The notes under the pieces are model-generated. The model made no database searches, was not told the DNA's origin, and saw only the letters and a list, made by a program, of their open reading frames with translations. A DNA stretch of 64,000 bases from Asterias amurensis (lineage: Eukaryota > Echinodermata > Asteroidea > Forcipulatida > Asteriidae): positions 16,388,012 to 16,452,011 of the forward strand of contig NC_092665.1 of assembly GCF_032118995.1 (NCBI RefSeq), read 5' to 3'. This document shows positions 12,893-63,644 of the stretch, one piece after another; position 1 is the first letter of the stretch, and every line of letters starts with the position of its first letter. Made by a program: the position numbers and the translations under genes.

Positions 12893-13158
12893 AAGCCAGT
12901 AGCCAGCAGCCAGTAGCCAGCAGCCAGTAGCCAGCAGCCAGCAGCCAGCAGCCAGTAGCCAGTAGCCGGCAGGCAGCAGGCAGCAGGCGGCAGGCAGCAG
13001 CCAGTAGCCAGCAGCCAGTAGCCAGCAGCCGGTAGGCAGCAGGCGGCAGGCAGCAGGCGGCAGGCAGCAGCCAGTAGCCAGCAGGGGGCAGGCGGCAGGC
13101 AGCAGGCGGCAGGCAGCAGCCGGTAGCCAGTAGTCAGTAGCCACTAGCCAGCAGAGAG
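12893..13158. repeat. CAG(T/C)AGC heptamer VNTR inside a putative exon
   Basis: About 265 bp made of CAGTAGC and CAGCAGC heptamers, drifting into GGCAGCAGGC(G/A)GCA in the middle. It fills most of the putative exon 12858-13228. Open frames across it (for example the Leu/Ala/Cys-rich minus-strand one) follow from the repeat and are not evidence of a protein. Confidence 0.9.
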
Positions 13159-26684: not shown

Positions 26685-27528
26685 GTAAGGGTTAATTTAT
26701 GTATGCCAGCCTTCGGCCCCCTACTCAAAAATCTCAATCGACATACGGTCTTCCTTGCATATTGGCCATGCCCTTGGAGTTGGTTTTACCTGTATCGTTA
26801 TTCTTTTGGGTTTACAACTTTTTTAATGATATGAAATTGTTAAGCTGGCATGTTGTGTGTTGACTTTAGTTTGGGAGTTCATGGTAGTTAAAACACGAAT
26901 ATTTACATCACACTTTTCCATTATTTACACACATTGTCATTACTTAAAAAATACTACACTACAGACTGCAAACAAAGTGTGGACTGAGTCAGCTTTCTTC
27001 AAGTTCAAAGTTTCATTCATTCAACAACACAGCCATTCGCCTAAATCGAGTTTCTGTTTCATCATCATAATTATTTATTATTGAAAACAACACATGGCGA
27101 TTGATACTACTTGGTCTTGGACAAATATTAACTAGAATTAGAAAGACTAAGAGCATCATTCTGAACATGAATAAAAATAATTCAACGCAGATTCAAACGA
27201 CATGCAGCAGTCACTCGAGTTCAAGCTCTCTCGAAAGGTACACACAGGGCCAGGCCACTTTTTTCGCCCTAAATTTAGCTTTGGTCAGTTGAATAATTTG
27301 ATTACATCAATCTCCATTTTTATAAGCTTTTATCCCAGCATATGGAACCACAGTCAAGTGGGTTTCAGTTGGGATTAAGATTCTCGTTCTTCATCTGTTC
27401 ATTGATTCTCTGACTAGAGGTACGGTCATTCCAACTATTTTCAACCTACATTCTCAAACAGCCTTAACAATGTTCCTCTCCCCTTTTTCCATTTTAGGCT
27501 GACGCTGTGGTTAAAAAAAGAAACAGAC

Positions 27529-30500
27529 ATGCAGCGAGCCGGCATGAATGAAAAATCACCACTCCTAAGGTATCGATTGGACAGCCAAGATCACAGCATC
27601 GAGGTACCGGACAATGATGGCAGCCATGAAGTTCATGGCGCTGGATCTACTCGTCATCTAACAACATTCTTCGGCGTTTTTGTGCCATGTGTGCTATCCA
27701 TGTTCAGCGTAATCTTGTTTTTGAGAGTCGGTAAGTGGCATGTCTTAGTATTTTTTAGAAATAAAACATCTGTCCCCTTATAAATGTTGGAGTATTAGTT
27801 TGGTAGTCAAAAAATTTACAATTCTGAAAGCAACAAGAATTAAGAAATATTACAATTTTTTTTTTTTTTTTAGAGTGTATTTTTTATTTTTTATTTTTTT
27901 TGAGTTTCATTTACCCTTCACTATTTGTGATAAACACCTGTAGCTTACTCAGTCCGTCTCTGGTTGAAAAAAATCCCAAAACCACGATGGGATTCCATGG
28001 TTTGCCCTTTCATTGACTGGCCAGCAGGACAAGGGCCCAACTTCATGGCTCTTCTTATACTGTAAGCAAAGAATTGGTGCTTACTGAAGCAGGGAATTCC
28101 GCGCTTACATGAAAGCATATTTCACAGGTTAACAGTGAATGTTTGATTTGGCTTACAATTACGTTCTCCGCTAACATAGCTAGTGCAGAAATTTGGCACC
28201 TGCCCTGTAAGCAAAGATTGGTGATTGGATCGTAAGCACAGACATTGACAGTAAGCAGAACCATGAAATTGGACGCAGCTGGCTTGTCATTTTGCTACTC
28301 CATCAGCTTTATAGTTCATAATTCCTATTAGCGATACTTTTAAAACGTTAAACGTCTGTCTCTCTCAGGTTACGCTATCGGTGAGAGCGGCTTGTTACAG
28401 TCTCTGGGTATGTTTGCTTTGGGTTATTTCATCGTCTTGCTCACTGTTCTCTCCATCTGTGCAATTTCCACCAACGGAGCCATCGAAGGAGGAGGAGCAT
28501 ACTGTATCCTTTAAGGCACTGAAGATTTCTCAGAATTTGTCTTTAATTCTCCTTAAAAAGTCTTTAACTGTTCTTCAGGAAGTAAATCACTTCACCAAAG
28601 GGAGAAAGAAATAACCCATATTATTTGTGTCCAAACCTGTAGTTTTGTATTTCAGTGCACATACAGTGTAGTTTCCCAAAGGATGTTTCTGTGAATTGCA
28701 ACTCAGGTTCACTACACTACACTAATACACTGTGTAGTGTAGAAAAAAATGAGTTGCGATTTCCTTTGGGAAACTTTCATTAGTTTGCAAGAGGGAATTT
28801 CCTGTCATTGGAGTCGAGAATCCATTTTTGTAGTGCTATTTTGGGCTAAGAATTCACATGCAGCGATTCTGATTGGTATCCTGCTAATAGTTGCTAAGCA
28901 CAGAACTTGTAAACAAAGTTGTCTGCAAGCAGCTGTATGTAATGGGCCCAGATTGTGAACAATGCAACCTGTATCACATGATGATGTAAACAATACCATG
29001 ATCCTGATCGACCTTTGACCCAATCACCACTACTGGTATAAAGATAAGAGATCAGAGTTTGTTCTCTGAGCTAGCCGCTACCAAAGTCCGTCCTACTTGA
29101 GATAATTTTCATCGATCGGTCATAAATTATCATGTAAACAATTATTCAACAGGTACCAGTCTGAAAATTCGGTATTTAGTTGCTAAGGATTAAGGCAGGA
29201 AGCAAGACTCTTTATGCAACCTGTATTTAAACGACCTTTTTGATTCAGACATTGCATTGATTATTTATTCTTCAATTCAAGTGATTGTTGTTGTCCATGA
29301 ACTCAGAAGTCGGGTTCTTATCTGGGGTTATAAGCTTATGTTGATAAAAACCTTAAAAAATAAATAAAATGAAAATGACACACAATGGCTTCCAATCAAA
29401 CCCACATTGACCCACTTTCTAACCTTTCATGCATTGCCAAACTTTTCTTGCTGAAGTGAGATAAAAAAGAGAACAATTCAATTTAATGTAAAAATCTTCC
29501 TTGAAACTGTTTCCTTGTATTTTGAACAGCCATAGAAATATATCAGGGGAAAAACAATTTTTATGGACTTAATTTTACCCGGTTCCAACTTATTGTAAAT
29601 CTTGAAATAAGATACATTTAAAAAAAGGTCAACTGTGTTTTTGTTTTGTTACGCAGATTCTTTTCTTCAGTTATTGCCAGTATCTAAACCCTTACCTAAA
29701 AAAAAAAGTCAGATGCATATTTTTTTGGTGGAAATTATTTCTTTGTACCGAATATTGACCTTAATTTGAGTTCATCAGTTATGATCAGCAGAGCTTTAGG
29801 ACCAGAATTCGGAGGAAGTATTGGATTCATGTTCTTCATCGCTAACGTATTCTCCTCAGCGCTTTATTGCATCGGCTTTGTAGAGGCTATTATTGATAAC
29901 TTTGGAACTGGAGGTAAGATTTTAGGTCAGAAGTTTCTGCAAAGCTAACTGGAAAAATAGTAATTATTAATTATAAATTGGGATGATGTCCTGACTTCTT
30001 AAGGATGTGGCTACCTGATTGTCAGACTGCATCAAGCTTGGATCTTTAATTCAAGTGTCATGGCAATCCACAATCTGTTTGATTAGAATACCAGTCAACT
30101 AGGATCTGGTGCTCTAGACTGGTCATCATGGAGACGCCGAGTTTCAGATTATTTTGTCTGGCACCTTGTATTTGCTTCTAAACCAAAGACTTTGATTTAC
30201 GTTGATTTTGTTTTCACAGGAGCACTTCTCATTCACGGACAGAGCGGACTTCCTATCGACTATTGGTGGACACTTTTGTACTCCTCTATCGTCCTCTTCT
30301 TCTGTCTCAGCGTCTGCCTCATCGGAGCCGGGATGTTTGCCCGTACCTCCTTCCTCATCTTCTTGGTTGTCATGGCAACACTCGTAACGGTGATTGTGAG
30401 TTTCTTCACCAAGCCAGCAGGGGATATGCCGATCCCGCACAACAACCCGATCCATAATGTGACGCATAACGCTTCGTATACCGGCTTCAACTTGACTACG

Positions 30501-33500
30501 CTAAAGAGCAATCTGTACGGTGAGTATGCCAATACTTTAAGGATTTAAATGCGACACCACTAGTCTCGGTTTATAGATGTTATGGTACATGACGTCGTCA
30601 GAGGTGAGAGCTATGTATTGAGAGAGTTGTGACAAAGAGGGACCAGTTTTCTTTGATGATGTGGTAGCTGGAGGCCATTTTTGGACCAGTTGCCTTACAA
30701 CCAAATTGGCAGAGTAGTCTGGCGCCTTTTATACACACATGTGTTTTTTGGACACAAAGTGACTTCTAATTGCAAGTTCCCATAACTCTCTCAATCAGGC
30801 TCTGGATTTTGTTTGTGGAGGATGCCAACTCAGATTACCATCTCATATAAACATTTCACTTTCTCTTTCAGTTTCCCCAGAGGACATTATCCCTGACTAT
30901 ACGACAGGCAAGGACGTGAATTTCCTTGTAGTGTTTGCCGTGTTGTTCAATGGATGCACAGGAATCATGGCTGGAGCCAATATGTCGGGTCAGTAAAGCC
31001 GATTGTGCCCCTGATAGTTTTGAAAAAGTTAGAGTTAAGTTTTTTTTGTCCTGAATTTACAGATGCTTCTGTCATGTCTGTAGATGTTTGACCAGCTGGG
31101 GGCCAATTTCATAAAGCCTGTAAACACACATACTTGCTAAGCACAGAATAGTACTGCTGAGCAGAAACACTTTACCAGCCAAAATTACATTAAGTTTTCA
31201 TTGTTGTGGCTTATTTTTTGCTTAGCCCTTATGAAATTAGGCCCAGGTCTTACCCCTGGAGTGCTTTGTGGTGTTGCACGTCCATTCAGTCAAGGGTATT
31301 GGACTCAAGTTCTGATCGCTTATTTATCAGAAAATGAGTTCATGTTTCTCAAATTTCTTAGGGTTGGTGTCTGTTCTTGTATGCTGCAGTTGACCGTCAG
31401 AGATGTAGTTAGTACCTTGTTTGAGTGGATTTGGCGTTAAAATGGCGTGACAGTTTTTGCCATTTTTTCAAGTTGACACTCAGCTGGAACTTTCTCTAGT
31501 GATTTTAATACATTATTATCATAATTATGTTGACAAAAAAATCAGCATTTTGTTGACAAAAAATCTGTTGAAATGTTTATAGGTGAGTTGAAGAACCCAG
31601 GTAGAGCGATCCCGAGAGGTACTCTAGGAGCTTGTCTCTTTACTGGATTGATTTACGCCGTAGTAGCGTTCCTCGTTAGCGCAACCTGCTCAAGGTAAGA
31701 CTAAGATTCGCCCATCTCTAGATTTTTCTTGTTGTTCTTCTTGTTGTTGTTCTGCTTTTTTATGACAGTAGTTCATTCTGATTGAAATGTTTAAGGTATC
31801 GTAAAGAATTGGTAAGGATAAACAACATAATTGCTTAATTTCAATCTGAAAGCCTACTTATTTGGAAGTTCATACCACAAAAAAAAAAATAATAATATAA
31901 TTCTACTAAAAATATATAATTTTTGAGAAAACTAGGTGAAAACCTGACCCAAAAAACCGCAACAGCTGATTTTGGTTGTTAATAATTTAATAATAATAAT
32001 AATTAAAACTTATAAAGCGCCATCTATCTAAGACTAAACTTATTCCGAGGCGCAACCGAAACTAAGGGTAATTGTTTCCAAACTAAGTTTCCTTGTTTAA
32101 AATTCTGCATTGTGTTTCACTTTTTTTTTGGAAAGAAAGTTTGTTGGCTAAAGTTCTCCTTAACTCTTGTTCATATTCAGAGAACTTCTACAGAATTCTT
32201 ACGGCTTTCTGCAGCAGATTAATATCTTTCCACCGGGTGTGGTAGTCGGAATCCTAGTAGTCTCTTTATCAGCCGCTCTTACGACTCTCATTGGAGCATC
32301 TCGAGTCCTCCAAGCCATCGCTAAGGATGCTGTATTCGGTAAGTTCATTAAAGACCCTGGACACTATTAGTAATTGTCAAAGATCAGTCTTCTCACTTGG
32401 TGGATCTCAAATTATGCATTTTGGGATATTTGTTGACAGCTGCTCAGCAAGAGGATTTGGTGTTAATAACAACTTCCTCTGAGTTGACTAAAACATAATA
32501 TTTACAGGTTCTATATGGTGGAACAACTGTGTAAAAGGTGGGGGTCGGCCTATTGGTATCTTTCCTTGCCTTCCACCTCTAGGACCCTGGTCGAATCTTA
32601 CCGGGGGCACTATGTGGATTGAGTTTTCAATCCCTACCTGACTGCTTGGGTTTCCCCCTGGAATAGTTCTCCCACATCTGAAACAAACATCTAAAACTGA
32701 AACAAAAATCGCTGTGATAAATTTTGTTAATGATTACTGATTAGTATTTGACAGTATGATCAACTAAAAAAAAATTACCAACTATTTTCTTTTCTGACGT
32801 TCTCGTTTTTCAAGGTGTTATTCTTCTGCCAGTACACAAAGGAATCACAAAGGATGGTAATCCTATTGTTGCAGTTCTTGTCTCTTGGTTTCTTGTCCAG
32901 GTTTGTAAAACCAACGCACAGTATTGTTTTTAACAAATTAATAGTATGAACTATTTTTAAATAACTTGGGTATTTGGTATTGCTGTAACACCATGTATGT
33001 ATCTACTTGCTTGGTAGTTGTGATTATAACCTCATCTGAAGAATACTTAAATAGTTACAAATATTTTGTGATAATTTATCTTTCCTAAACAGCTTGTTCT
33101 ATTGATGGGATCATTGAACACCATCGCTCCCTTGGTCACCGTTTTCTTCTTGCTGTCTTACACGGCCACCAACTTGGCTTGTATGGCCATGCATGTTGCA
33201 TCAGCCCCGAACTTTAGGTAAAGTGGTTTGTAAAAAAAAATTATTCTGATATTTTGATAGTTAAAAGTATTCTCTACTCAATTAGGGTTAGCTTTAAGGG
33301 GTTTATATACCCTTTATAGATTAAGTTTTTGCCGGTGGCATAATTGCTACCCACTGGCAGGGCTCACTGTGAGGGAAGATGTATGTATGTAGGGAGTAAA
33401 CTAGGTCATTAACGGGCTTTAAACTACAATGTACTGTGAATGAGGACGTATGTACATCCAAACCTTGATCCTTAACCAGAGCAAACCTAGACCATAAACC

Positions 33501-36500
33501 AGTTCTGAAAACAAACCCAACACCAGAACCATCGTTCCAAAAAGTTCCTTGATGTTGACTGTTTTGCTTCTTGCCCATCCCACCTTCTCCAGGCCGTCCT
33601 TCACGTACTTCTCATGGCACACATCACTTCTTGGGATCGTCTGTTGTCTGGTCATGATGTTCCTCATCAATCCACTCTGGGCATCCATCAGCATCGTTGT
33701 CTTCATCCTCCTCTTCATCATCATCTCGTTCCGCATCAGTGAATCGGACTGGGGTTACATCACACAGGCGCTCATCTTTCATCAAGTGAGTGGAATTTTT
33801 TATTAATTTCAGTTTCACCCTTACACCGATGAGTGTTAGCGTTGTATTGACCACTTGTACGCACATCACACGCTCACCATTGTGAATAACCCACGGTGAC
33901 ATTGACCAGGTTATTCTGATGATGACGTGACGTGAATTGGGTCAATACTCAGTACTTTCATCAGTCGCTTTGTGAACAAAATCACAGGCATATTACTTGG
34001 GTGAGATTCGAACCCACGACCTTTGCAGTTCTTCATGTTCTAGTGTTCATGTTCAACTGCAGTGTCTTACCAATTAGACCACTGAGATTGCCTGGTAGCT
34101 AGAGGCAGTTATCTGTGTCTGGAAATCAAATCGGTTTGTTAATCTGGAGGTCATTGGTTCTAGTCCTGTTGCTGTCAATTTTTCTTTGTTCAAACCCAAA
34201 CTATCTGAAATCAATCAAGTCATAAACAAATAAACAAAGGACCATGGTAAACAACTCAAATTTGTTGGGTTAAAATATTTCCTTTTTCTTCTCGGCAGGT
34301 TCGTAAATATTTACTACGTCTTGATGTCAGAAAAGATCACGTCAAGTTCTGGCGCCCTCAGATGCTCCTGCTAGTTGCGAATCCTCGTTCGTGCTGTGAA
34401 CTCATCAGATTCGTCAACGACATGAAGAAGAGTGGATTGTATATTCTGGGTCACGTCAAACGAGGTCAGAAAAAGAACTAATTCATGAAATATTTTGGCA
34501 TTTTGTGAAGCCTAATTAACTTTAAAAATATAAATTGTTTGAAGTTCAATGTTTTTTTATATTTATGAGTGCGTTTGTCATGTTTCATGCTTTCATTCAA
34601 TATATCTGGATATTTAAATATTGTTTGTTTTTACCCAATACTGTACTTTTCTGAGTTCTGTGAAAAAATCCTAAGGCATATCACTCGGTTGGGATTCAAA
34701 CCCATGACCATTGTTTTGCTAGAGCAGATAGCTTACCACGAAACCACCAAGCTAGCACACTATTAGAGGCAGTTTAAATCCTATGTGTATTGCAATGCTC
34801 TAGCAGGTGTTATACAATTTTGTTTTAAGTTACTGGCCCTATAAGCTGTTTAAAAATTGTTTAAAAATTGTTGTGATTTTTTTGTTGATACCATTTTGAA
34901 CATGTTTGTAAGCTACTTGGAAAGTGTTCAGAAACTATATTTTGGAAACTATTTTGAAACTATTTTGAAACTTTTCAAAGACAATTCAAAAGCTGTGTTG
35001 AAACCAATTTGAAATTCGTCAAAAACGGTTTATAAACTTTTCCAAAACTATTTTGAAACTGTTCAGAAACTAGGTTGAACACTAAATAATCACTTGCCAT
35101 GTACTTAAGCTAGTTTTAAAGTACAGTACACAAATTGGAAACATTAAATAGGTGGGGCATGTGGTGCTATTCCTGGCTGGCCCAGATTTTTCTTTTTTCT
35201 ATATTTGCTTGTTGTAAAGATTTTGCGCTGTTGTCGTATGTCCGTAGTCTTTATTTAAATTTTGCTGTTTTTCTATTTTAAATAATGCTCTTAACCATTT
35301 AGTTTTTATAAATATATTTTTTATATTTTAAAGTACAATTTTAAAATTTTGATGTGTTTGTAGTTGCTTGGCATCTCTGAAAAACAGTGTTTTACTGAGA
35401 GGTTTCCCCAGGGTAACGAAGAAATAAATAAATAAACTATTTAGAAGCTATTCAACATTTATTTAGAACCTCTACTTGTGAACTATTTAGAACCTCTACT
35501 TGTGAACTATTAACAATAACTTATCCTTACAACTTTTCTTGAAGGTGTTTTGGATGATGGTTACTCCGATCCTGTCCAGAAGGAATACCCAGCATGGATC
35601 GTCCTAGTAGAGAAACTTAAAGTCAAAGCATTTACTGAACTGACTCTCGCTCCAACGATTCGGGAAGGAGCTCAACATCTCATGAGGATTTCAGGACTTG
35701 GAGGTAAGGAGAAAGCTGAATTTCTGTTAAGTAATAATTTTATGGAAAACTATTTTGAAAATAAAGGGAAATCTGATATTTTGTGGCTGTCAAAAAGACA
35801 GAACAGTTTAACGCTTCCTCTAGTTAATAAATTTGTTTTATTTTTCTTGTAGGTATGAAACCAAATACAATAATTCTAGGTTTCTACGACAGCTGCCCAT
35901 CCAAAGATTCATTCAATAAATGCAAAGTGACGAATAACCATGGCAACATATACGGAACGGAGGATTCAGGCATTGAGGAAGAGAGAGGAGATCCGTTGAA
36001 TGCCTTTGAGCCCGTCAGACAGTTCAATAGTCCAAACAGACTGTCCGTCGAGGAATATGTTATGATCATCAGCGACAGCATCCGATTGAGGAAGAACGTC
36101 TGCCTCATGCGTTACTTCAGTAAGTTTGACCGGGATGCCATCGCTGCTAGCAAGACCCTGGCGTTCATCAACATCTGGCCCATCAACTTCTTCAAGCCGG
36201 AGACCAGCGGGTACCTGGATACGGCGTGTATCTTCCTATTACAGCTTGCCTGCGTCCTCCATATGGTCCGTGTCTGGAAGAAGCACACCTTACTACGAGT
36301 GTTCCTGTGCAATGGTGCCGATGATGACAGCTCCATCAGCAAGCACAGACAAGAGAAAATGGAGAAGTTTCTAAACGAGTTGCGCATCAAGGCCACAATC
36401 ATCATGGTCAGCAACAGCAACATCCAGCCGTTTGCCGTTATGAAGGATGACATGGGTGCTAGCAGCGACCACGGCCACGCCCAGTTGGTTTACTCCCAGG

Positions 36501-36706
36501 TCTCAGATACTTACATCCAAGAAGTCAACACGATGATCAAGAATTACTCAAAGAACACCGCTGTCAACTTCTGTTACTTACCGCTACCTCCAACAGATTC
36601 CACTCAGCAAGCTGATTACATGCGACATCTAGATGCACTGACCTTTGACCTGCCCCCAACTGTTCTTGTTCACGGTATACAAGAAGTAGCGTGTACAGCA
36701 CTCTAG
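27529..36706 (+). CDS. SLC12A9: Solute carrier family 12 member 9 (cation-chloride cotransporter-interacting protein type)
   Basis: Thirteen coding exons: 27529-27730, 28369-28503, 29779-29913, 30220-30519, 30872-30988, 31583-31694, 32181-32338, 32815-32900, 33093-33217, 33593-33785, 34299-34464, 35545-35703 and 35853-36706. All are in phase (2742 nt, 913 residues; the human protein has 914). The start at 27529 reads [17 protein letters not shown]; a Met at 27544 is the alternative and fits the family's NSSPLL-like start. The membrane core begins [20 protein letters not shown] and includes [28 protein letters not shown] and [17 protein letters not shown], the amino-acid permease signature of SLC12. 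The loop at residues 237-250 has three N-glycosylation sequons (NVT, NAS, NLT). After the last membrane segment, [20 protein letters not shown] starts the SLC12-type cytoplasmic C-terminal domain, which ends [19 protein letters not shown]12A9 is an orphan member of the family, reported to act on other cotransporters or in endolysosomal ion transport. The exon 5 donor (GTCAGT) is weaker than the others. Confidence 0.96.
28033..28275. mobile_element. GGGCCCAATTTCAT-family palindromic element in SLC12A9 intron 1
   Basis: Left end GGGCCCAACTTCATGGCTCT, right end GTAAGCAGAACCATGAAATT. The interior carries GTAAGC/GCTTAC words and resembles one 163-bp unit of the copy at 3819, so they belong to the same subfamily. 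Confidence 0.75.
31098..31244. mobile_element. GGGCCCAATTTCAT-family palindromic element in SLC12A9 intron 5
   Basis: Left end GGGGCCAATTTCATAAAGCC, right end CCTTATGAAATTAGGCCC, about 147 bp apart. Shares the TTGCTAAGCA interior with other copies. Confidence 0.7.
32351..32430. mobile_element. Fragment of the GGCAGTGGACAC palindromic family
   Basis: CCTGGACACTATTAGTAATT followed by TCTTCTCACTTGGTG matches the left end of the copies at 37530, 38097 and 60017. The right part is missing. It begins about 10 bp after the SLC12A9 exon 7 donor. Confidence 0.55.
33985..34225. mobile_element. tRNA-derived repeat fragments
   Basis: GGGTGAGATTCGAACCCACG at about 33998 is an inverted B-box. GGTTCTAGTCC followed by TTTCTTTGTTCAAACCCAAA at about 34155 matches the tail of the repeat at 48330. 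These are SINE-like remnants in SLC12A9 intron 10. Confidence 0.5.
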
Positions 36707-39059: not shown

Positions 39060-41700
39060 ATGTACGGTCAGCAGAGAGATCGGGTCCTCAAAACACAAAC
39101 AGAAGTCCGTTCTTTATATAACAGAGGAAGCCCAAGTACTCGACTCCGGCCTTTGGATATCAGTCGGTCATCCTGCAAATTGTTATTGCTTTGAACAAAA
39201 AAAAAAACCTTTGTCGTGGAATCCTCTCTCTATTGTATGCCTACCAAGGAAAAACGATCCCCGGACCTCAAAAGCCCCAAGCACAAACCGACTCCTAAAT
39301 TACCCCACGACACATGACGGCAGACCAGTCAAGGGCGAAACCGGTAAACTGTGACTTTATGTGAAGTCACGCGTCGGTCACTTAGGTGCCACGATCGAAC
39401 ATCTAAGCCATGAATTGTGGTATCCATTTCAACAGGTTACGATTGAATTTCATCGGATTGTGTTTGGTTGGTTCTGCGAGACTGGAGGCTTTAGTCTTTA
39501 TACCTCTTTCATATTTCCCCAGGCGTCTTCAACATCTCAGGTAAAATCTTCCAGCACAGCTGTGCGCGCACGTGCGGTTAAAACCTGTATTTGAACATTG
39601 CGCGTGCTCTAAATGCACACGTATTGCGATATTGAATAGTACTATACCGTGGCAGTTTTAATGGCGAGGATTTTAAAGTGTGTTTTAAATTCTAGAGACA
39701 CTTTAGGTTTTGTCTTCGTCGATTGCAGCTTATTAGCTGGGCCTTGGCATTAACCATGCCTTGAAATCTTGAATCGTTTTTTAAAACGGTTCAAGAAAGG
39801 GTTAGTACTTAAAAGTACTTATCACTCTGTACTGAGACGAATCTTTTAAAACTTACTTTTTGACATAAATCAATTATTAAATTTGAAAGAATCGGCGGCC
39901 AATCCTAATCGTTTTGTAGTTCTAATTACGTATTTAATATTATTATTTAAACTCGTGATCAAAGCAGATTCTAATTGGCCGACGAGGTGTCGTAGTCAGA
40001 TCCTTTATTACCAAGGGGGTATTGGTACAATCTTCTTTGTAATTTTGTTTGGTTTGTCTTGGGATATTTTTTTTTAGATAATAATAAAAACCTCAGACAC
40101 AATTAATTTATTTGAATATGCCTGTCTTTAATATAAACCTAATTGCTTTAATAATGGTACTAAACAATGATGTTGACCAGAAAAATTGTCAAATAAAAGA
40201 ACATCGACGACTTTGTAGGGATAATGTGTATGCCCAAATCTTATATAATTCATAATTATAAGTTATTTATATCATCTCACCAGACTTGTGGTTTAACAAT
40301 CTTAAGAACTCGAGCAAAAACCAACAAAATGAAGTTGACAGTGAGTGAACACATGGTTTCACACAACTGCTGTTTTATGTTTTATGTTTTCAATCACGTA
40401 GAAGCCTCTTGCGTATTGGCTTGAACCGAAATCCACCCTTTACGATTTATTATTAGTTATTATCCGGCCTTTTTATTTTAGAATTATTTACACTGGATAT
40501 CTCTAACTTTAATTACTCAGTTTTAGACGACGTCACCTAATTGGTCGTATTGGGGATGCTACTATGATGGGCCGTCTCGAAATGATAGTTTTTCCTCTGG
40601 CCTCGCCCACAAATATAAACCTGCGATCCAAGCAAATTCAAAATGGCCGACGAGATGTAATTGTCATTAAAGACTCATACCCTTTATTAGCAAGAAGCCT
40701 GTGGTGACGTCACGGAGATCAAACGTAACATATCGCTATATACTTTGTGAACAGTTTGCCTGTTATACAATGCCAGTATAACTTTACAACTAAACATGCA
40801 CCTCACCATGCCAGTGGGCTGTGCTTAACTAATTATTTATTCATTTATGCAAACAAGTGGGAAGCCGAATGCGGATGAATAATATTTACAGCAATAATTA
40901 ATCTTTGGATGAGTAGGCCTACACTGGTAAGGTGCTAAAGAAACAAAACTAACAATGCTAGAGGACGAAGTCTGGAGTTAGCACCGAAAACTACAATTGG
41001 CTAAAGGATGCATTTTACAATCTAAACTTGGCTAAAAGTTGAGTTTTTCTCTAAATCAAATAATGCTCGTTTTGACATTTGTGTTGTTTTAATGTCAACT
41101 GCAAGGCGAATGCACATTTTATTATAAACACCTAGCAGTTACCAATCGTTTTTCTTTTAAGGACAGTTTTGATCTTCGATTTTTTGAACTCATTTGGAAG
41201 GTCGTTATCTAGATCAAAGTACTAGAAAGGCGATGACATTTTATGGAAGAGGGAAAGGGGTTGGGAATAGACACAATTACCAGGGTTCACATTCTGAATT
41301 TAACACCTTCTAAAAAATTGTCCTTTGCAAGGACCTTTACTGCAGTGCAATTGTTTTTAGGAATTATTGGGGGGGGGGGGGCAGGAAAATCTTGCAACCA
41401 CTGTACATAGTGCAACTCGCTGAATCTACTTAAAATAAGTGTTAGTGTGCGAGTAACTTTGATGACGTCGTTTAAGACGTAATTACTTCGAGCGTTTCTG
41501 AAACTACGGTTTGAAAAAGAAGAAGAAAACTCTCACCAGGCTAAACCTTTCTCAAACCAGCAAGATTATTGTTACTTCGGTCGCCATTTGCTTGCCCAAG
41601 TACGGCAAGAAAATAACCCCAAATGTTGTCCGCTATCCGTGTATATGAATTTAAACACCTCTGGCTACGGCTGTTCACTGTAGTAAGCCGTGGCCATAGC
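39060..41700. other. Intergenic interval without a recognised gene
   Basis: I see no supported exon. A possible donor (CTCAGGTAAAATC near 39538) follows a GC-richer stretch, and TTTATATAAC lies at about 39113, so an unrecognised 5' exon cannot be excluded. A G-run is at 41370-41382. Confidence 0.35.
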
Positions 41701-41775: not shown

Positions 41776-44700
41776 TCAAATGCTTCTTTTCTGAGATCCT
41801 TGTCCTTTGTCAAATACGGGTGTCCTCCAGAACAGAAAGTGTGCTGGATTTGAAAAAGGAGACAGAGAAAGAACAAATTAGGTAAAAAGGCCTTCTTTCA
41901 CTTTTGTACAAACTGAAAAAAAAAATAGAGCAATTGAACGATCGTGTAGGAAACTTTTAAAGTATATTAAATTTGCATTGGGGATAAAAGATGTTTTACC
42001 CCTATATCGACTAGTATCAAGCCCTGTATTCGGTGTTTTTCCCGAGTCCTTTGTCTGGTTAGACGGTTCTCTGGGTATAATAAAGAGGGTTCGATTTCCA
42101 CCCGAGTTATGCCTGAGGATATTTTTCACGTGACTCTGGGGAAAGTTCTTAGATACAGTGCTTTACACAGATTTGGTAAAACAGAATTATAGGGTTAACT
42201 TGATTACTTTTACGGGTAATAATGTTATCTTTCGGAGGAGAGGTGTTTCTGAAAGAACTATTGGTGGTGAGATTCTCGACGTTTCAATCAGTATACGCTG
42301 TTGGTCTTAGTGTGAATGCTAGCTAATGTATCATTTTTTTAAACAATATTTTATTTGTTTTTGTTTATGAACAATGTTTTTTACAAACTTAAAAGCTATT
42401 TATTTTACTCTTCTAGACTTCTCCTAAGCATATGAATGAGCAGACAACTATTAATTATGTGTATGCACAAGTTTGATTGTAAAGTTCTTTACTTTTTTTT
42501 TACTCTCGATTATTTAGTTTGTCCTTGAGAAAATTGACTCCCGTGAAAACAAAATATTTCTGAATTTTACGGTAAAAATATTTGAAACATGGCTGGAGTT
42601 CATGTCTGGTTCCATTGGCAATTACAACTGAGAACATTTCTATTCCCCCTGGACAGGATGCCAGTCCATCGCAGTTTACTCCCCAGCTCTCACCAATATT
42701 CATTATTTTGTACTCCTTGGTGGAGAGAAGCAATTATGATAAAATGCCATGCTCAATGACACAAGTGTCGCGACTAACCAGGCCCAGGATTCGAAGTCTA
42801 GACCGCTCAGCCACGACATTAAAAAAACAGTTATAAGTGGTATGATCATTACCAGATGGTCCTTTAATAAAAATCATCTAAGCTAAACTGTATCTTTAAA
42901 ACACTTTCTTCACCGTAAATGCAGACGAGACGAAAGTACAGTCTATGTTGAAATAGACACGACTCGACGCAAACCCAATACCCGCTCTTTTAATCACCTA
43001 TCGATTTATCCATAGCCGCAAAGACGGCTTGTCTGGGAGACTACACACCAACCCACCCACGTCAACACGAAACCGATCCCCTACTTCAGACTTTTGAAAG
43101 TTCCAAATGATCCGATTACATCCCCCAAAAATATTTATTTCACCGTGTTTAATATTCTTAATAATTGTTGAATAATTGAATACTTGAGTCACTGGAAAAA
43201 GAACTTCAAAAGAGGTAAATTCTCACTCAACTTATATTTAAAAAGACTTCAGCTAAAGCCTTTTATTATACATCCGAAAGCACACCAAGTAGTGCAATAA
43301 GGGTGTTTTTACTTCATTATTTTTTTGCAAATTCGATGACAAATTGAACCAAATGTTCACGGACTTAGTATTTTATGCATGTTGGAATACATCAAGTGAG
43401 AATACTGGTCTTTGACAATATTGCCAAAGGTGTCCAGTGCCTTTACAGCGCGCTTGAGGATATCTTTTATGTGGAATCTTAAGGAATAGTAACTTCACTT
43501 CTAGTTGAATCCCAGTTGCACTTCCCTAGACACGTCAAGGTGGATTTAAGGAAACTTTTTTTAAAACATTTTATTTGAGCAAACGTGTCAAGCGACTCCC
43601 ATGTCAAGCCAAAGTAATAAATGTCGAGTATCATAAAAAAGTGTGCCAACCCCCAAGTTATCATTACAGCATTTGGATCAGGATAAACCTCAGAAGCCCC
43701 TGGAGTTATCGGAAGTAACAAAGAAATTGGGGTCGGACAAATAAAGAATGTCCAACAACCCTAAGGATCTGTAAATGTTGTTCTTTCTTCGATGGTGAAT
43801 GAAACGAGCGCGGTTGAGCAGACGTTAAAATAAGGCGCGAAATATCCGTGGGGTATTTTGTAGTAAAAACATATCACGGGGTGAATTCCTTAGATCTAAA
43901 ATTTCCTTTTCGCGAAAGAAGGCGGTTTTGTATGTTACATTCGTAATTAAATTTCTGGGTATAGTGAGATTTTCTTTTCTTATTCAAAGAGTTGTTGACG
44001 AAAGAAGCTGGTATATGGGGCCAACCAATCAACTTTGTGTTAGAAATAATTATTATGTTAGTATGGCACCTATTAATTTGTATTTATTGTGATGGAGTTT
44101 TTTTATAATGTTCATAATATTAGAAAATGAACTAATGTTTGCGTTCATGTCTTATAAAGACTGGTTGTTTTCAAGAAATATTATATTCATATTGTTTTAC
44201 ATAACTCCTTTTACGGGCTAAGACTTTGACGAACATCCAGTTATCAATCTCCAACAACATTCGACAGAGAGAAGTGATTTGAACATTCTGTAAGTTTACG
44301 TAAAGTGAAATATTTCCGGTAGTATTTTTTTACCGCGATTCACATGACAGCATGCGTGATGGGTGACAACCATTTCTTTTTGTTTCCCTTTTTTATCGGT
44401 ACTTTCCTTCCCAGCAATGTAACAAGTTTTTTCTTTATCAAAACTATATATAGGCCTTTACTTTTTATAGTAAACAAACAATTTTAGTGCAGAACGAGAA
44501 CAATATACATTGTTGGTTTTATGAAAGAGTTAATAGAGGTTAATTATTTTTGCATTGTACAATTTACGCGTACCGTTACACAACAAAACGGTATTCTCTC
44601 CATACGTTATAATCCCGTTCTCCATAATTACGGAAATAATTACGGTTGTGCGTTATCTGGTTCGTAAGTAATAAAGTAAACGTTTGAATGTGGTTGTAAG

Positions 44701-47700
44701 GAATTGTGTCCTTGGGGTTTTTATTGCGTAAGTAAGTTTTGGTGTGTATTTTGTGCTTTTAGAAACTCAAACCAAAATGCATTTCGCTGAATATGTTTGT
44801 GTATAATGTGATAATAAAGCAAGCTATATATGCCTACTATAATTGGCGTGCCACATGAAATATAAAATAATGTTTGCATCAAAACTAACAATTTTATGGT
44901 GATCCAAATCAATAAACAAGAATAATTTTCCACTCTCACTATTCAACGATGAGACCTAAACACATGATGCGAGATACGAGCTTCAACGTGTAAATCAAAA
45001 TCTAAACCCGGGACAAGTTAAAGACTGACGGATGGGTTACGTGATTGGCCAAAGGCACCCATGTGACCTTTATCCTTCCACGTCTTTGAATCGAAACCAA
45101 ATTGTCCATTTTGATTAAAGATGTCATCAGATCGTCACGATAGACAAGAAGGAAGGAGTGTAGAAATGTCTCCAAGCTATGCAGCTTCTTGTCAAGCGTC
45201 AAAATGTCATGAAACTAATTTCCACTATTGTGAAATAATATTATCATCAACATTAGACTAGTCGTTGTGAACGTGTATGCGTGTGTTGGCCACAGGAAGA
45301 AAATTAACACAAGCAGATACCAGAATATGGTTATCAGCCAAAATACAACGTAAACACCATTTGCTATGGTTTCCTGCTTATATTTGATAAGCAGAAACAT
45401 TTTAAACACCAATATCTGCTTGAGCAGCTCAATGAAATATGTCTCTGTGTTTAACCTGCATGCATATTTTAAAGTTTAATTTAAACTAATTATATACCAT
45501 ATTTATAATTCTGTAAACTAAAAGTTCCTGCGAAACATAAGTCATCCAATAAGGTCACCCAAGAGAATCCGTCGGTGAAACGCATCCACGTAATCTCTCT
45601 GCGATTCCCATTTAACGTACATTATCTTGATTCAAAGAGCGTAAGCATTAACTGTAGTCCAACAACCTAATGCACTTTAGCTTGATTCAAAACATGTTTT
45701 TGCCTGCGCTCTCAAGAGAAAATGTCATCAGCATTGCCAATAACTTACAGAATAAAGGGAAAATCTAGCAATAAAAAAAAAAACACTATTTGCTAACAAT
45801 ACTTTATCGGGAGATTTAAAATGAAAGAAGCCGAAACCGGAAATGATGATTTTCATTTTCCATTTTGCCATTACATTTTGGTAAAAAAAACAAAAAACTA
45901 AAACAGTATAAGTATTAGCTCTTCGTATTAAATCGATCTTACTACGGTTTTTGTTGTTCATGTTTTGAGATATCCTATTTCCAGCACTGCCTGTAAATAT
46001 TTTAAAGCATTTCCTCCAAAACTTTCACTCGAATTTTCATTTCTACTGACGCAAGACCCACTTTCCATTAGACTTAATTCAGCCGCTTAATCTTACTGCC
46101 GGTAGGGTTTCCCATTACGCTGTACGCACATCAGCCTTCAGATAAATTAGCTGTAACCGTAGTGGAGACTAATAACGGTAAAAGCCCTCGTGCCGTACGT
46201 ACAGGCGCATTTGTTTTAATTATCATCATATTGAAAGAATTAGGTTTTAATCTATATTATGGAAAGGAAGTTGGTGTTAGATTCATATAAGACTTAGGCT
46301 ATGCATGTTTGAACAAAGTAAGTAAGGTTCGGTGAGACCATGTAATCAATCTATTTTGTGATTAGTGGTGGCTCTGAAAAGAGCTGGTTCCTTTATTAAT
46401 TTGAGTTACCTATACGTACATTCTTGTTAGTAAGCTGTTCTTATAAATTCTACTCGACTACTCTCCTCACCACAAATAATACTCTTCCTTATAACTCAGA
46501 AATATTCAAGTTTATTACTTGAATGTTATGACCCGAGGAAATACATGAAAGGGAAATTAAATAGATGATTCAACTTGCAGTAATTGAAAGGAAACGATTG
46601 CGGTGTTTCTTGGGAGAAAAGAGCGGGTCTTTTTTTTATCTCGTTCGTCAAAGTATTTGTTTTATATTTAATTAATCGTGATTTCGTTTCATGATTCAGT
46701 TTCTTTTATGATTTAGTTTCTTTTAAAAGAAACCAGTACACTTATCGAAAAAAGAAGGTGTTCGCCCCAGTGTTCCTGGTTTGATCGGCACTCGGCAGCA
46801 TACTGCGCCACAGCACCTTGTAAACCATTGCATGTGGTGCTATATAGGCCTAGAACTCATAATTTAAAGAGCCAATAAAGGATGATCTCAATATGTCAAC
46901 TATTACGTTTTTTATGGCCAAATAGACATCGCAGATAACGGTTAATAACCATTTTACTCTCAAAATTTGCATTTAGTAATAAATATCTCGCTTCAAAAAT
47001 GCACCCGGCCGCGCGGATTTTTCAGCCGAGAGTCAAAAACGGCTTATCTATTATAATGACCCTGGACGCCAGTGACGATTTTCCCCTATTGGTTTTGAAC
47101 ACAGTTCTTCAGCTTTGGCATTTCCACACCAAATAGCCACCACTGACGTCATGATTCCTTTGTCGCGCGGGTTTGTCTGACCCCACGTTTTTTAGAAATT
47201 TGGCTTGGAGCGTTCTGGAGAAAACCCATTTTTACCATGTTTTAACATGAGGTAAGAGACTCGTTATATTTTTTATGTTTCCTGGATGGACTGCAGCTGT
47301 TAGAAAACTGTAATATCTATATTTTTCAGATCATCCTTTATTGGCTGTTTAAACGTAGTCCCAGTCATTATACCCTCTTGCATGAAAGTAATATACGTTA
47401 AAGCGCCTTGCGCGACACTGAACGGTTTTCGTTTGTAATGAAACTTTCTAAAAACAACTCTAAAAGAGAAACTCCTTACACACGCCATCGGCTTTAATTT
47501 AGGATTAGTTAAAAACCTCATCAATATTATAAAGGGCGTGGTTAATCTTACATTTTCTTTTTGAAACTCGTTGTACGTCATCTTCATTGGGCGTGTCCAT
47601 GTCTTCTCTTAACAAGACCAAGGCATCCAGTAGGAGGTCTACCGTCCTTCTCTGCCATAGCGCGGGGGATGTGGCTGCTGGTCTTGCAACCATGTCGTAT

Positions 47701-49877
47701 GGAAGGTTCTCTGAGTTGTAGAAAAACCAGAAGAAAACAAAATCATCAATTTTCTCCGATTTTTTTTCTTTTCAACTTTCTAAATAATTATTGGTGTACG
47801 AAAAATGCAAACATCGTGGCCAAAAAGCCGAATTGCGGATGCGTTACAAAGATTTTTTTAAAACGCCAAGTGCCTTTACCTCCGTGACTCATTTTTGTCG
47901 GCAACTTCGATCGATATTTAATTTTTGTTAAAATAAACGAGGAGTACAATTGCATGTTCATATTAAAATGAAATCTTAAACATTGGAGTATAAAAAATAA
48001 AAAACAAAAGGAAACATAACTGCCCTTTTTTAAGTACCTCTGAAATTTGTGACATTTTCTTTATATTCATTTCACGTTTTGAAGCTAATGGAACTATAAT
48101 GAGTACTGAAAAAATGAGTACTGCAAAATGAGTATTGCATATTATGCAGTACACATTTTGCAGGGTATATCTGTTGTCGACAGTCAGAAGGAAAATGCAC
48201 TGTTTGCACGAAATAAAAATACATTTTTACATCTTTTAGAAGATATATTCTCGTCTTAGGGTCTGCTGATATCAATGTTTTAAAAACACATTTTAAATCA
48301 AAATTATCTCAGAGGTAAATATGGCTATAGGGTAGTTCAGTAGTAGATTACGTTTATCCGGAGAGTGTTGGTTCAAATCCACCATTAGTCACCTTTCTTT
48401 GTTCAAACCCAAATCAACTGCGACATTATGACTTTTTTGTTTTGGGTTTGTTGTTTTCTTTGACCAAGTGAGTTTCTAAACAAAGTCACTGAGGTGAAGT
48501 TTTTCACCCAGCTGAACAGGCTCAACAAAGTTTCGCAGACGACTGAATGTTTTTCCTATTTGCGTTGATATGAGGATATGGAATTTATACACAAATTTAA
48601 ATATTTGATAAGTAAATCAATCAGTCAGTTCTTCCTTAAAGTTATTTTGTGGAGTCAGCTATGCGTATGGTTTTATGGTATACAGAATAATTATTGCTCC
48701 ACTGAACATGAACAAAGGGAATTTTAAGTCTCCTCTTTTTATTCTGTGATTCTGTGATCAAAAGATATCTTTAATGCACAAATGTTTCTCAGAAATTAAA
48801 CAAAATTGTGGAAAGATTTTAGGTAATTAATGAAACTCTAAAAGCTGAACAATTAGTTTAATTAGCGCGTAGAAAGACCAAAACTCAGAGTATACAATCT
48901 TTTCAGGGTTAATTAAAAAATGTTCAATATTGATTTGCACAATGCACATAGAGGAGTTAGCCATCAGGCTCGCTTAAAGACTTAAACTCAAAGAATCTCT
49001 CATTAGGTAAAATTGCTTCTATTGACCAGTCATTCCCAGGGGGCATTAGTCGGATGAAATGAGAGACTAATGACCGTCTAATCCAAACAATGCCACTTGT
49101 TGACGGAGGTTGTCGTCCTAAGACGCTAATCTGAATGCAAATCAATTGTTTTAAACCGTCCACTTTAAATACCGACCATGAAGATTGTAGAACCAACAAA
49201 AATCAAAAGGTTGGCTTTGTTTTGCACACTGCGTTCACGGTGTGGAGAAAATTTCATGACAAATTTCGCCAAAATGAAAAGTTTAGCGCTGCCACTCGTC
49301 ACGCCCCTGAAATATTTTTCTTTTAATTTAATCAAATCTTATAAGATGATTTTGAATATTGAAAATAAGATCTATTGTTTCGAGTACCTATCAAAATAAC
49401 AACTTTTGGAATGAATTTGACGGCGATCAAAGCACACTGATCGAAACGTCAGGTTTTTCACATCATCATCTTTTTAGAATCCTACTGCCGCTCCGTTTTA
49501 AACTACTACAGTTTACAATAAATCCGTCAAGTAACCAAACAAAAGACAAAAACGCGACTTGTCTTGTTTCTAGTAAAAGATAAATCTTTGTCAAGTGAGG
49601 TCAAGCAGAAATCCCTTCACACAATATTTAAAAATCACATCCATTTGGTGACACTGATAAATTATTTGAACAAAAGCGCACTTCAAATTCAATCAAATTA
49701 TTGTCAAAAAAAGATTAAGGATTGTGTAAAAAGAAAAGGAGTAAGTGACTGAGATGCTTTCTTACCTTCTTCCGAATAAGGCGTTTCCATTGTGCTAGCT
49801 GATCGTGTGAGTGTCGATATAACTACAGCAACCATTGCTAAAAGCACGCAAATTCTTGCGCTAGTCGTTCCCGCCAT
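41776..49877 (-). CDS. Putative neuropeptide-like secreted precursor, 112 residues
   Basis: Three exons on the minus strand: 49877-49766, 47710-47552 and 41843-41776 (TGA at 41778-41776). All are GT-AG and in phase. The last exon has a very strong pyrimidine tract before its acceptor and continues into a 3' UTR with a further donor at 41720 (GTAAGG). Residues 1-28 are a clear signal peptide (core ICVLLAMVAVVISTL). A spacer follows with an RR site (LWQRR) and an amphipathic segment TVDLLLDALVLLREDM. Then SKRK marks the start of SHFLFWRTPVFDKGQGSQ, followed by KR, Ser, Ile and stop. This is the layout of prohormones cut by convertases. The FWRT core recalls the FWKT of somatostatin, but the paired cysteines are absent, so I do not assign that family. 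An unseen exon in the 5.7-kb intron could change the end; in frame 0 the last exon would instead read HTFCSGGHPYLTKDKDLRKE. Confidence 0.5.
41935..42185. mobile_element. Diverged copy of the tRNA-core repeat at 17640
   Basis: It starts AAATTTGCATTGGGGATAAA (compare AAATTTGCATCGGGGATAAA at 17643), carries GGGTTCGATTTCCACCCGAG and TTATGCCTG, and ends with ATACAGTGCTTTACACAG. It lies in the 5.7-kb intron of the putative precursor gene. Confidence 0.6.
42600..42822 (-). mobile_element. tRNA-derived SINE, minus strand
   Basis: On the minus strand GTGGCTGAGCGGTCTAGA (A-box) and CTTCGAATCCTGGG (B-box) are spaced as in a tRNA. They are followed by a body and by GCGATGGACTGGCATCCTGT, a word common in the 3' part of animal SINEs. 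A fragment of the same tail (CAGATGCCAGCCCGTCGC) is at about 55021. An aminoacyl stem does not close, so it is not a tRNA gene. Confidence 0.7.
43250..43446. mobile_element. Truncated GGCAGTGGACAC-family copy, reverse orientation
   Basis: It ends CAAAGGTGTCCAGTGCCTTT and contains the complement of the family's CATAAAATAC and TTGTCATCGAA-like words, plus AAGGGTGTTTTTAC. The other half is missing. Confidence 0.6.
46868..47347. mobile_element. 480-bp element with AGCCAATAAAGGATGATCT ends
   Basis: GAGCCAATAAAGGATGATCT at the left is the inverse of AGATCATCCTTTATTGGCT at the right. The interior (GGCCGCGCGGATTTTTCAGC, GACGTCATGATTCC) is not palindromic and has no long frame. It ends about 205 bp from exon 2 of the putative precursor gene, inside its second intron. 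Confidence 0.6.
48330..48420 (+). mobile_element. tRNA-derived SINE fragment
   Basis: GGGTAGTTCAGTAGTAGA resembles an A-box and GTTGGTTCAAATCCACC a B-box, followed by TTTCTTTGTTCAAACCCAAA. The same tail follows the B-box at 34155, so these form one family. Confidence 0.6.
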
Positions 49878-50030: not shown

Positions 50031-50040
50031 TTTTTATGCG
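50031..50040 (-). promoter_or_regulatory. Candidate TATA box of the putative precursor gene
   Basis: CGCATAAAAA on the minus strand, about 155 bp upstream of the start codon at 49877, within a GC-richer patch. A start site near 50005 would give a 5' UTR of about 125 nt. This is inference from position and sequence only. Confidence 0.3.
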
Positions 50041-57165: not shown

Positions 57166-58034
57166 TTTATGATGTATATACAGAATGACGTCGGACACAT
57201 CACACTCCTCTAAAGATTTAATAAAAAAAGTGACATACTTTTGTGGAATGTTCTTCTCTGATTTGCAGTTTAGTGAAAATGTATCCATTGTGAAATCAAG
57301 TGTTTTGACGTTGTAGGTTAGAGCAACACGCTCCCCGAGTCCAAGATGATAGGAGCGTGTGGGTAAATACGTGCGACGCCGTCAGATGGTGTGGATAGAC
57401 GGGGGGAAAGTTGGGACGGGGGACAGGTTGATGACGAGTTTGTACTCGTCGGATAGCTTTGAAGTCGCCGCTTTTGATGCTACCTAAAAATGGTTTACAA
57501 TGTGTTGGCGGGTATTAAAATCTCTTTTAGATTTGATTGTTTGGGCTTCAGTTTTGTATTTTTGTCTTGAGACAGAGGTCAGTATCTAGGATAAAAAGAA
57601 ATCGTATTCCATGTTCTTTTTTCTTTCTTATTAAAATTACAGCTGCCGTTGTGGGCGCTGTTGACAGTGTTCTTGGTTTCATCTGTCTTCTTTTCTTGAT
57701 ATGAAAATAAAACCGAGGTGGGTGATGAGCTTTTTGTAGCTTTGCACATATGGGGATAAGTTATTCAATTTTGAGGGTGTGCTCCATTTTATATTTCACT
57801 TATTCTATTATTAGTCGAAATTAGTTGAACTTGTTGCATTAATAATAGTGAGGTTTAGCTGCATGTGACGCGAGCAAACACGTGAACGTGCGAACGTCAA
57901 AAAATCACCGGCACTGCCAGCACTGGCTACAGACACCAGCCAGAGTCACGAGCAGTCAATTGAGTTGGACACGGCCTAAAGCCATTTTCGAACAATCCAT
58001 GTTTTCGGTTACTTTATTTCCCAATCCTGTAAGG

Positions 58035-58345
58035 GATGACTTTGTAAGGGCGTGACTTTTGTCAGGGGTGACTTTGTAAGGGGTGACTTTGTAAGGGGCG
58101 ACTTTGTAAGGGGTGACTTTGTAAGGGCGTGACTTTTGTAAGGGGTGACTTTGTAAGGGGTGACTTTGAAAGGGGGTGACGTTGTAAGGACTTTGTAGAC
58201 TTTGACTGCCCTGTATAAACTGACTCTATCAGGGGGCGACTTTTTAATGGGCGAATTTGACAGGGGGTGACTTTGTAACGGAGGGGGCAAATTTGTTGTG
58301 GGCGACCTTTGCTGGGGGCGACTTTGTGAGGGCGACTTTATTGTG
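58035..58345. repeat. 15-bp minisatellite GGGTGACTTTGTAAG upstream of NSUN5
   Basis: About 20 imperfect units, best preserved at 58035-58180 and more diverged (GGGGGCGACTTT) to 58345. It ends about 210 bp before the NSUN5 start codon. The long minus-strand frame here (TKSPLTKSPLTKSP) is the repeat read through, not a gene. Confidence 0.85.

Positions 58346-58556: not shown

Positions 58557-63644
<5,088 letters not shown>

What the first reader, a model, noticed from the sequence alone, without database searches (positions are those of the whole stretch)
41776..49877. Possible undescribed neuropeptide precursor
Three spliced exons give a signal peptide, a dibasic site, an amphipathic spacer, and SHFLFWRTPVFDKGQGSQ set between KRK and KR two residues before the stop. 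The FWRT core resembles the FWKT pharmacophore of somatostatin, yet there are no cysteines to close a ring and no amidation glycine directly before the KR. It may be a linear somatostatin relative or a new peptide type.
Basis: inference. Interest (0 to 1): 0.75.

Follow-up and report, generated by a model that had tools for sequence, protein, structure and literature searches.

The report
Orphan starfish neuropeptide precursor candidate
A starfish chromosome carries what looks like a small three-exon gene for a secreted signalling peptide of no recognised family; its supposed link to the hormone somatostatin rests on about four letters and does not hold up.

Summary
On the minus strand, three exons (49877-49766, 47710-47552, 41843-41776) with two phase-1 GT-AG introns encode 112 residues: a signal-peptide-like start, an RR site, an acidic amphipathic spacer, then KRK-SHFLFWRTPVFDKGQGSQ-KR-SI-stop. 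The genome fits the published Asterias amurensis assembly.

The composite structure is unlike chance: 0 of 400 simulated 64-kb windows gave it. Exon 3, which holds the peptide, is the weak link: given exons 1-2, a dibasic-bounded last exon arises by chance in 38% of 6-kb stretches, or 7% if KR/RR must lie near the stop. Codon usage gives no support. No paralogue was found, no Pfam or PDB match, and no mention in searched papers.

The somatostatin reading fails three tests: no cysteine pair; a phase-1 first intron where SS/ASTC genes have phase 0; and similarity p=0.027, one of 22 uncorrected comparisons. Both known starfish SS genes lie elsewhere. Best reading: an orphan neuropeptide precursor. 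Expression and conservation in other species remain untested.

The parts
49766..49877 (-). Exon 1: MAGTTSARICVLLAMVAVVISTLTRSASTMETPYSEE plus the first base of the next codon. Signal-peptide-like n-, h- and c-regions; donor GAAG|GTAAGA, phase 1.
   Evidence: Hydrophobicity of the best 12 residues 3.45. Donor ranks 10 of 7380 GT sites. The signal peptide is judged from hydrophobicity and recalled rules; SignalP was not available.
47711..49765 (-). Intron 1, 2055 nt, phase 1
   Evidence: no candidate cassette exon at the gene's own site scores.
47552..47710 (-). Exon 2: (E)NLPYDMVARPAATSPALWQ-RR-TVDLLLDALVLLREDMDTPNEDDVQRVS-KRK. Internal RR site, acidic amphipathic spacer, then KRK at the exon end; donor AAAAT|GTAAGA, phase 1.
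   Evidence: spacer pI 4.05 and hydrophobic moment 0.66 for RRTVDLLLDAL; the only match of exon-2 DNA in the genome is itself.
41844..47551 (-). Intron 2, 5708 nt, phase 1
   Evidence: one weak frame-keeping cassette candidate at 43191-43057, none that changes the frame.
41776..41843 (-). Exon 3: S(split codon)HFLFWRTPVFDKGQGSQ-KR-SI-stop. Predicted 18-residue mature peptide SHFLFWRTPVFDKGQGSQ, free C-terminus.
   Evidence: acceptor ranks 143 of 7320 AG sites and seventh of the 26 listed acceptors in the 12 kb after exon 2; branch-site match at -35.
50032..50038 (-). TATA-like CATAAAA, 161 nt before the ATG
   Evidence: a motif only. One short upstream ATG at -64 and an upstream in-frame stop at -138.
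41118..41123 (-). First AATAAA downstream, 655 nt after the start of the stop codon: candidate polyadenylation signal
   Evidence: a motif only.

Best explanation
This is a neuropeptide (or small peptide-hormone) precursor gene of a starfish that belongs to no recognised family. Shown by sequence: an open, phase-consistent three-exon CDS with a signal-like start, dibasic sites and one peptide set off at the C-terminus. Inferred: after signal cleavage in the ER, prohormone convertases cut at RR, KRK and KR, carboxypeptidase trims the basic residues, the acidic helical piece acts as a spacer, and the 18-residue SHFLFWRTPVFDKGQGSQ is stored and released, uncyclised and with a free C-terminus, to act on a receptor, most likely a rhodopsin-type GPCR whose ligand is not yet known. 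The aromatic-basic core HFLFWRTP is the likeliest contact region.
For: Exact gene structure. Composite structure in 0 of 40 and 0 of 400 simulated windows. GC contrast and branch sites. The only last exon in the 12 kb after exon 2 that meets the same acceptor score and a closing dibasic pair. No frame-changing extra exon. Same layout as accepted echinoderm candidates (signal peptide, acidic spacer, single C-terminal peptide bounded by dibasic sites) described in PMC4772807 section 3.4. Orphan status: no Pfam or PDB match at E<=10, no paralogue in its genome. [quoted passage not shown]
Against: No transcript, no mass spectrum, no second species. Codon usage does not separate the exons from noncoding DNA: 11%, 14% and 73% of noncoding open stretches score as high or higher, and 3 of 4 control stretches from neighbouring genes did score positive while the NSUN5 stretch did not. 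A dibasic-bounded last exon of equal acceptor score occurs by chance in 38% of 6-kb stretches, 7% with KR/RR near the stop. A stronger acceptor lies 69 nt upstream of exon 3 (score 6.2 against 3.9) and would end the protein with FCTKVKEGLFT instead, though its only branch-site match is at -55. The scan also accepted an alternative last exon at 41208.
Confidence: 0.66

Rival explanations
1. The gene (exons 1 and 2) is real but the last exon is another one, so the peptide SHFLFWRTPVFDKGQGSQ does not exist.
For: Chance last exons of this kind are common enough (38% or 7% of 6-kb stretches). Six of the 26 listed acceptors within 12 kb score higher. An alternative last exon at 41208 also passed the scan.
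Against: No other acceptor at or above this score gives a dibasic-closed peptide in the 12 kb. The branch site at -35 with no AG between it and the acceptor is well placed. GC is raised in exon 3, 0.43 against 0.36.
Confidence: 0.18
2. A linear, cysteine-less offshoot of the somatostatin/allatostatin-C/urotensin-II family acting on somatostatin-type receptors.
For: FWRT against FWKT (p=0.027 uncorrected); peptide at the C-terminus; its gene lies on the same chromosome (C18) as SS2, 15.7 Mb apart. Human UII/URP genes, unlike SS genes, have a phase-1 N-terminal intron and further C-terminal introns (PMC7536072 passages), a partial likeness to this gene.
Against: No cysteines; no phase-0 N-terminal intron; precursor-level similarity to the SS2 last exon p=0.31; 22 comparisons were made, so p=0.027 is expected by chance; both known starfish SS peptides are encoded elsewhere. 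Sharing a chromosome has little weight with about 22 of them.
Confidence: 0.06
3. A small secreted protein that is not a neuropeptide (for example an antimicrobial or structural peptide) whose basic pairs are not processed.
For: Only the signal-like start and basic pairs point to a neuropeptide; there is no expression evidence.
Against: Three basic sites, an acidic spacer and a single set-off peptide form the usual neuropeptide layout. The precursor has just one cysteine, inside the signal region, unlike many secreted defence peptides (the latter point recalled).
Confidence: 0.06
4. A chance string of open segments and splice-like sites; no gene.
For: Codon usage is uninformative to mildly negative; three of four splice sites are unremarkable.
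Against: 0 of 400 and 0 of 40 null windows; exon-1-like starts 0.005 per simulated window and 0 in 134,803 bp of other genomic DNA; GC contrast at all three exons.
Confidence: 0.04

Closest known systems
Starfish SS2-type somatostatin precursor (ArSSP2; peptide RAKNARCMADFWKGRGLVDC)
   Same: One peptide at the precursor C-terminus after basic residues; an aromatic FW followed by a basic residue; same chromosome in this genome.
   Different: SS2 has a disulfide pair and an intron whose acceptor side reads as phase 0; this gene has no cysteines in the peptide and two phase-1 introns. Peptide similarity p=0.086.
Human urotensin II / URP genes
   Same: Phase-1 intron in the N-terminal part and further C-terminal introns (PMC7536072 passages); FWK core (recalled).
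   Different: Cyclic peptide; p=0.064; phases of the further introns were not seen.
Crinotocin, crinoid vasopressin/oxytocin-type peptide (CFWRTCPVG-NH2)
   Same: FWRT, then PV two residues later: the best-scoring peptide in the panel (p=0.001, but chosen by searching for FWRT).
   Different: Cyclic, amidated vasopressin/oxytocin-type peptide. The layout of that family (peptide next to the signal, neurophysin after it) is recalled. Here the peptide is last, uncyclised, and no neurophysin follows.
Echinoderm np18 precursors (Ovnp18 peptide LFWVD; Arnp18)
   Same: LFW triplet (p=0.026 uncorrected); orphan echinoderm precursor.
   Different: Arnp18 has nine cysteines in its C-terminal part and its dibasic site at 36/37; this precursor has none after the signal region.
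Orphan Asterias rubens precursors Arnp21-Arnp25
   Same: Signal peptide, dibasic-bounded peptides, no family assigned in 2016; Arnp24 places one peptide at the C-terminus.
   Different: Described lengths (102, 157, 118, 83, 97 residues), amidation glycines or cysteine pairs do not fit this 112-residue precursor; compared by the text only, as the figures are not held.

Membership tests
Neuropeptide precursor (general kind) | N-terminal signal peptide | tested here: met
   Hydrophobic core of 12 residues with mean 3.45 after MAGTTSAR; no dedicated predictor was run.
Neuropeptide precursor (general kind) | Peptide bounded by dibasic sites | tested here: met
   KRK before and KR after SHFLFWRTPVFDKGQGSQ.
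Neuropeptide precursor (general kind) | Expressed in neurons and processed to the mature peptide | not testable with these tools
   No transcriptome or mass spectrometry data held.
Neuropeptide precursor (general kind) | Peptide conserved in related species | not testable with these tools
No paralogue in that genome.
Somatostatin/allatostatin-C type | Pair of cysteines forming a ring | tested here: not met
   No cysteine in the peptide; the pair is described as characteristic in PMC7536072.
[quoted passage not shown]
   First intron is phase 1; phase 0 reported for the family, and the acceptor of SS2 in this genome reads as phase 0 (its first exon was not found).
Somatostatin/allatostatin-C type | FWK/IWK core (SS branch) or FXP core (ASTC branch) | tested here: inconclusive
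   FWR instead of FWK; four-residue match, p=0.027 before correction for 22 comparisons.
Somatostatin/allatostatin-C type | Activates somatostatin-type receptors | not testable with these tools
   Needs a receptor assay.
Vasopressin/oxytocin type | Cyclic amidated nonapeptide next to the signal peptide, followed by neurophysin (recalled) | tested here: not met
   Peptide is last, has no cysteines or amidation glycine, and no neurophysin follows.
Echinoderm np18 type | Cysteine-rich C-terminal part (at least 4, and 8 or 9 where complete) | tested here: not met
   No cysteine after residue 10.

The most novel reading that the evidence does not exclude
SHFLFWRTPVFDKGQGSQ is the founding member of a new bilaterian or ambulacrarian peptide type, and the missing ligand of one of the ambulacrarian receptor groups (such as leucokinin-, galanin/allatostatin-A- or QRFP-type) reported as lacking a known ligand.
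Probability: 0.1. Interest if true: 0.75.

Novelty: new member of a known kind. Interest (0 to 1): 0.4.

Why it matters
Echinoderms sit between protostomes and vertebrates, and several of their receptor groups were reported without a known ligand. Each new precursor is a candidate ligand, and a cysteine-free, non-amidated one is easily missed by searches that look for amidation glycines, cysteine pairs or repeated peptides. If conserved, this peptide can be made cheaply and tested at once on starfish muscle and on orphan receptors. If it is not conserved, it is a local curiosity of one species.

Tried and rejected
Somatostatin kinship: tested by cysteines, intron phase, peptide and precursor alignment, and by locating SS1 and SS2 in the same genome; rejected as membership. 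Vasopressin/oxytocin kinship through crinotocin FWRT..PV: rejected on layout. The likeness to the melanocortin core (HF, W, PV; p=0.10), urotensin II (p=0.064), spexin (p=0.32), galanin (p=1.0) and leucokinin (p=0.58) was scored with recalled peptides and carries no weight. Np18 and the Arnp21-25 orphans: layout differs.

Coding potential from 8521 codons of 30 GPCR frames (family search, which scored 147 of 1047 candidates): the exons do not stand out from noncoding DNA, and one of four control stretches also failed, so it was kept as weak negative evidence. Locating the first exon of SS2 upstream of its last exon failed, so the phase of its intron is read from the acceptor side only. NCBIfam (a prokaryotic library) had no match. 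REST-type silencer sites: best 16 of 21 bases at 56516, outside the gene; no meaning drawn. No structure prediction was run, because a lone 112-residue precursor would give little. No scan of the viral or prokaryotic collections was run, as they hold no echinoderms.
Full report
What is there. The finding's coordinates are exact, on the minus strand. Exon 1 (49877-49766), exon 2 (47710-47552) and exon 3 (41843-41776) join through introns of 2055 and 5708 nt, both phase 1, into a 339-nt CDS for MAGTTSARICVLLAMVAVVISTLTRSASTMETPYSEEENLPYDMVARPAATSPALWQRRTVDLLLDALVLLREDMDTPNEDDVQRVSKRKSHFLFWRTPVFDKGQGSQKRSI. The genome has 491,506,623 bases in 23 contigs, with a longest fetched contig of 38.01 Mb and one of 23.75 Mb. 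The published Asterias amurensis assembly has 491.53 Mb, 22 chromosomes of 13.43 to 38.00 Mb and N50 23.75 Mb (PMC10625585, passages). I take the species to be A. amurensis; this is an inference. The window lies on contig C18. Its neighbours are an SLC12-family transporter and an NSUN5-type methyltransferase, both on the plus strand.

Is it more than chance? A scan asked for a purine at -3, a 12-residue hydrophobic core at least 3.15, a GTAAG[AT] donor, a phase-compatible second exon with a basic pair, and a last exon that closes a peptide between basic pairs. It found in the real window only this exon 1 and exon 2, with two possible last exons: the one proposed and one starting at 41208. It found no complete case in 40 first-order or 400 second-order simulated windows. 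Exon-1-like starts averaged 0.005 per simulated window and were absent from 134,803 bp of other fetched genomic DNA. The thresholds come from the observed case, so this overstates rarity somewhat. GC is raised in all three exons (0.464, 0.491, 0.426 against 0.332 and 0.357 in the introns), and each acceptor has a branch-site match at -36 or -35 followed by no AG before the acceptor.

Results against it. Codon usage trained on 8521 codons of 30 GPCR frames does not separate the exons from noncoding DNA (11%, 14% and 73% of noncoding open stretches score as high or higher on the full score; 63%, 48% and 61% on synonymous choice). Three of four control stretches from neighbouring genes scored positive and one, from NSUN5, negative. 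With approximate generic matrices, donor 1 ranks 10 of 7380 GT sites, but donor 2 ranks 228 of 7380 and the acceptors 235 and 143 of 7320. Of the 26 acceptors listed in the 12 kb after exon 2, six score higher than that of exon 3. One lies 69 nt upstream and would give the tail FCTKVKEGLFT, but its only branch-site match is at -55. With exons 1-2 given, a last exon with equal acceptor score and a closing basic pair occurs in 38% of 6-kb second-order simulated stretches (300 runs), and in 7% if KR or RR must lie close to the stop; the real 12 kb holds only the proposed one. So the gene is more secure than its peptide.

With thresholds at this gene's own weakest splice scores, intron 2 holds one candidate cassette exon (43191-43057, 135 nt) that would keep the frame, none that would change it, and intron 1 holds none. 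Conservation in other species could not be tested: no other echinoderm genome is held. Within the genome, exon-2 DNA matches only itself, and the whole precursor and the last 26 residues match only this gene at E<=10; that search scores best candidates only.

What family? No Pfam model and no PDB sequence matches at E<=10. Full-text searches of 5.39 million open papers found no paper with FLFWRTP, HFLFWRT, FWRTPVFD, LFWRTPV, FLFWKTP or FWRTPV, none with starfish, neuropeptide and FLFW, and none with neuropeptide, echinoderm and LFWR. FWRT together with neuropeptide precursors and echinoderm, or with somatostatin and peptide, led only to crinotocin, CFWRTCPVG-NH2 (PMC9793003). Figures, supplements and most subscription journals are outside these searches. 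The orphan precursors in PMC4772807 (section 3.4, read in full) do not fit by described length and layout.

Somatostatin. Echinoderm SS/ASTC-type peptides have a cysteine pair, and the genes of starfish and sea urchin have a phase-0 intron in the N-terminal part (PMC7536072, passages). Here the peptide has no cysteine and the first intron is phase 1. In this genome the SS2 peptide is encoded at C18:724743-724802, 20 of 20 residues identical to Asterias rubens, and the acceptor of its last exon reads as phase 0. SS1 is encoded at C7:17518077-17518121, 15 of 15. Shuffle tests over 22 peptides (14 from papers seen here, 8 recalled) gave crinotocin p=0.001 (chosen by its FWRT, so post hoc), np18 LFWVD 0.026, human somatostatin-14 0.027, urotensin II 0.064, SS2 0.086 and alpha-MSH 0.10; the rest were 0.26 or more. 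Precursor against SS2 last exon: 0.31. For fairness: human UII/URP genes have a phase-1 N-terminal intron and more C-terminal introns, and this gene shares chromosome C18 with SS2, 15.7 Mb away. Neither outweighs the failed defining features. It may act like a somatostatin only in the sense that an aromatic-basic turn could be its contact site; that is inference.

How it most likely works. Signal cleavage, convertase cuts at RR, KRK and KR, trimming of basic residues, and release of a linear 18-residue peptide with a free C-terminus; the acidic amphipathic stretch TVDLLLDALVLLREDMDTPNEDDVQRVS (pI 4.05) is a spacer. These steps follow from established neuropeptide biology and are not shown here. 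[quoted passage not shown] An orphan ligand therefore has possible partners, though none of the scored motifs favours one of them.

Verdict. A credible candidate gene for an orphan starfish neuropeptide: new member of a known kind. The somatostatin interpretation is not supported. I could not tell whether the gene is already in an unpublished or automatic annotation.

Noticed in passing
window 5210, 22776, 25107, 40705, 47144, 50419: Six full palindromic CRE motifs TGACGTCA; 0.63 expected and no shuffle of 100 reached six. One lies 542 bp before the ATG of this gene and one inside its intron 2. Whether the motif is common genome-wide was not checked.
   Followed up: partly
window 27418-36706, plus strand: Exons of an SLC12-family cation-chloride transporter (SLC12 domain 49.5 bits at 35831-36703; permease domain over its cut-off at 33498-33803, below it at 30087-30545).
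   Followed up: partly
window 60741-63644, plus strand: NSUN5-type RNA methyltransferase exons (NSUN5 ferredoxin-like domain 36.9 bits; RsmB/F methyltransferase 67.1 bits).
   Followed up: partly
window 43057-43191, minus strand: Candidate 135-nt frame-keeping cassette exon inside intron 2, weak splice scores; it could add an alternative segment before the peptide.
   Followed up: partly
window 12894-13154, 58028-58189 and 3854-4347: Tandem arrays: a 7-bp unit (about 37 copies), a 15-bp unit (10.5 copies) and a 163-bp unit (3 copies, 97% matching). They produce long chance ORFs with repetitive translations.
   Followed up: no
window 34000-34082, minus strand: tRNA-like Rfam match right at the gathering score (29.1 against 29), not found by ARAGORN; possibly a tRNA-derived repeat.
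   Followed up: no
genome contig C18: 724743 and 16429787-16437888: The known starfish SS2 gene and this gene lie on the same chromosome, about 15.7 Mb apart; with about 22 chromosomes this may well be chance.
   Followed up: partly
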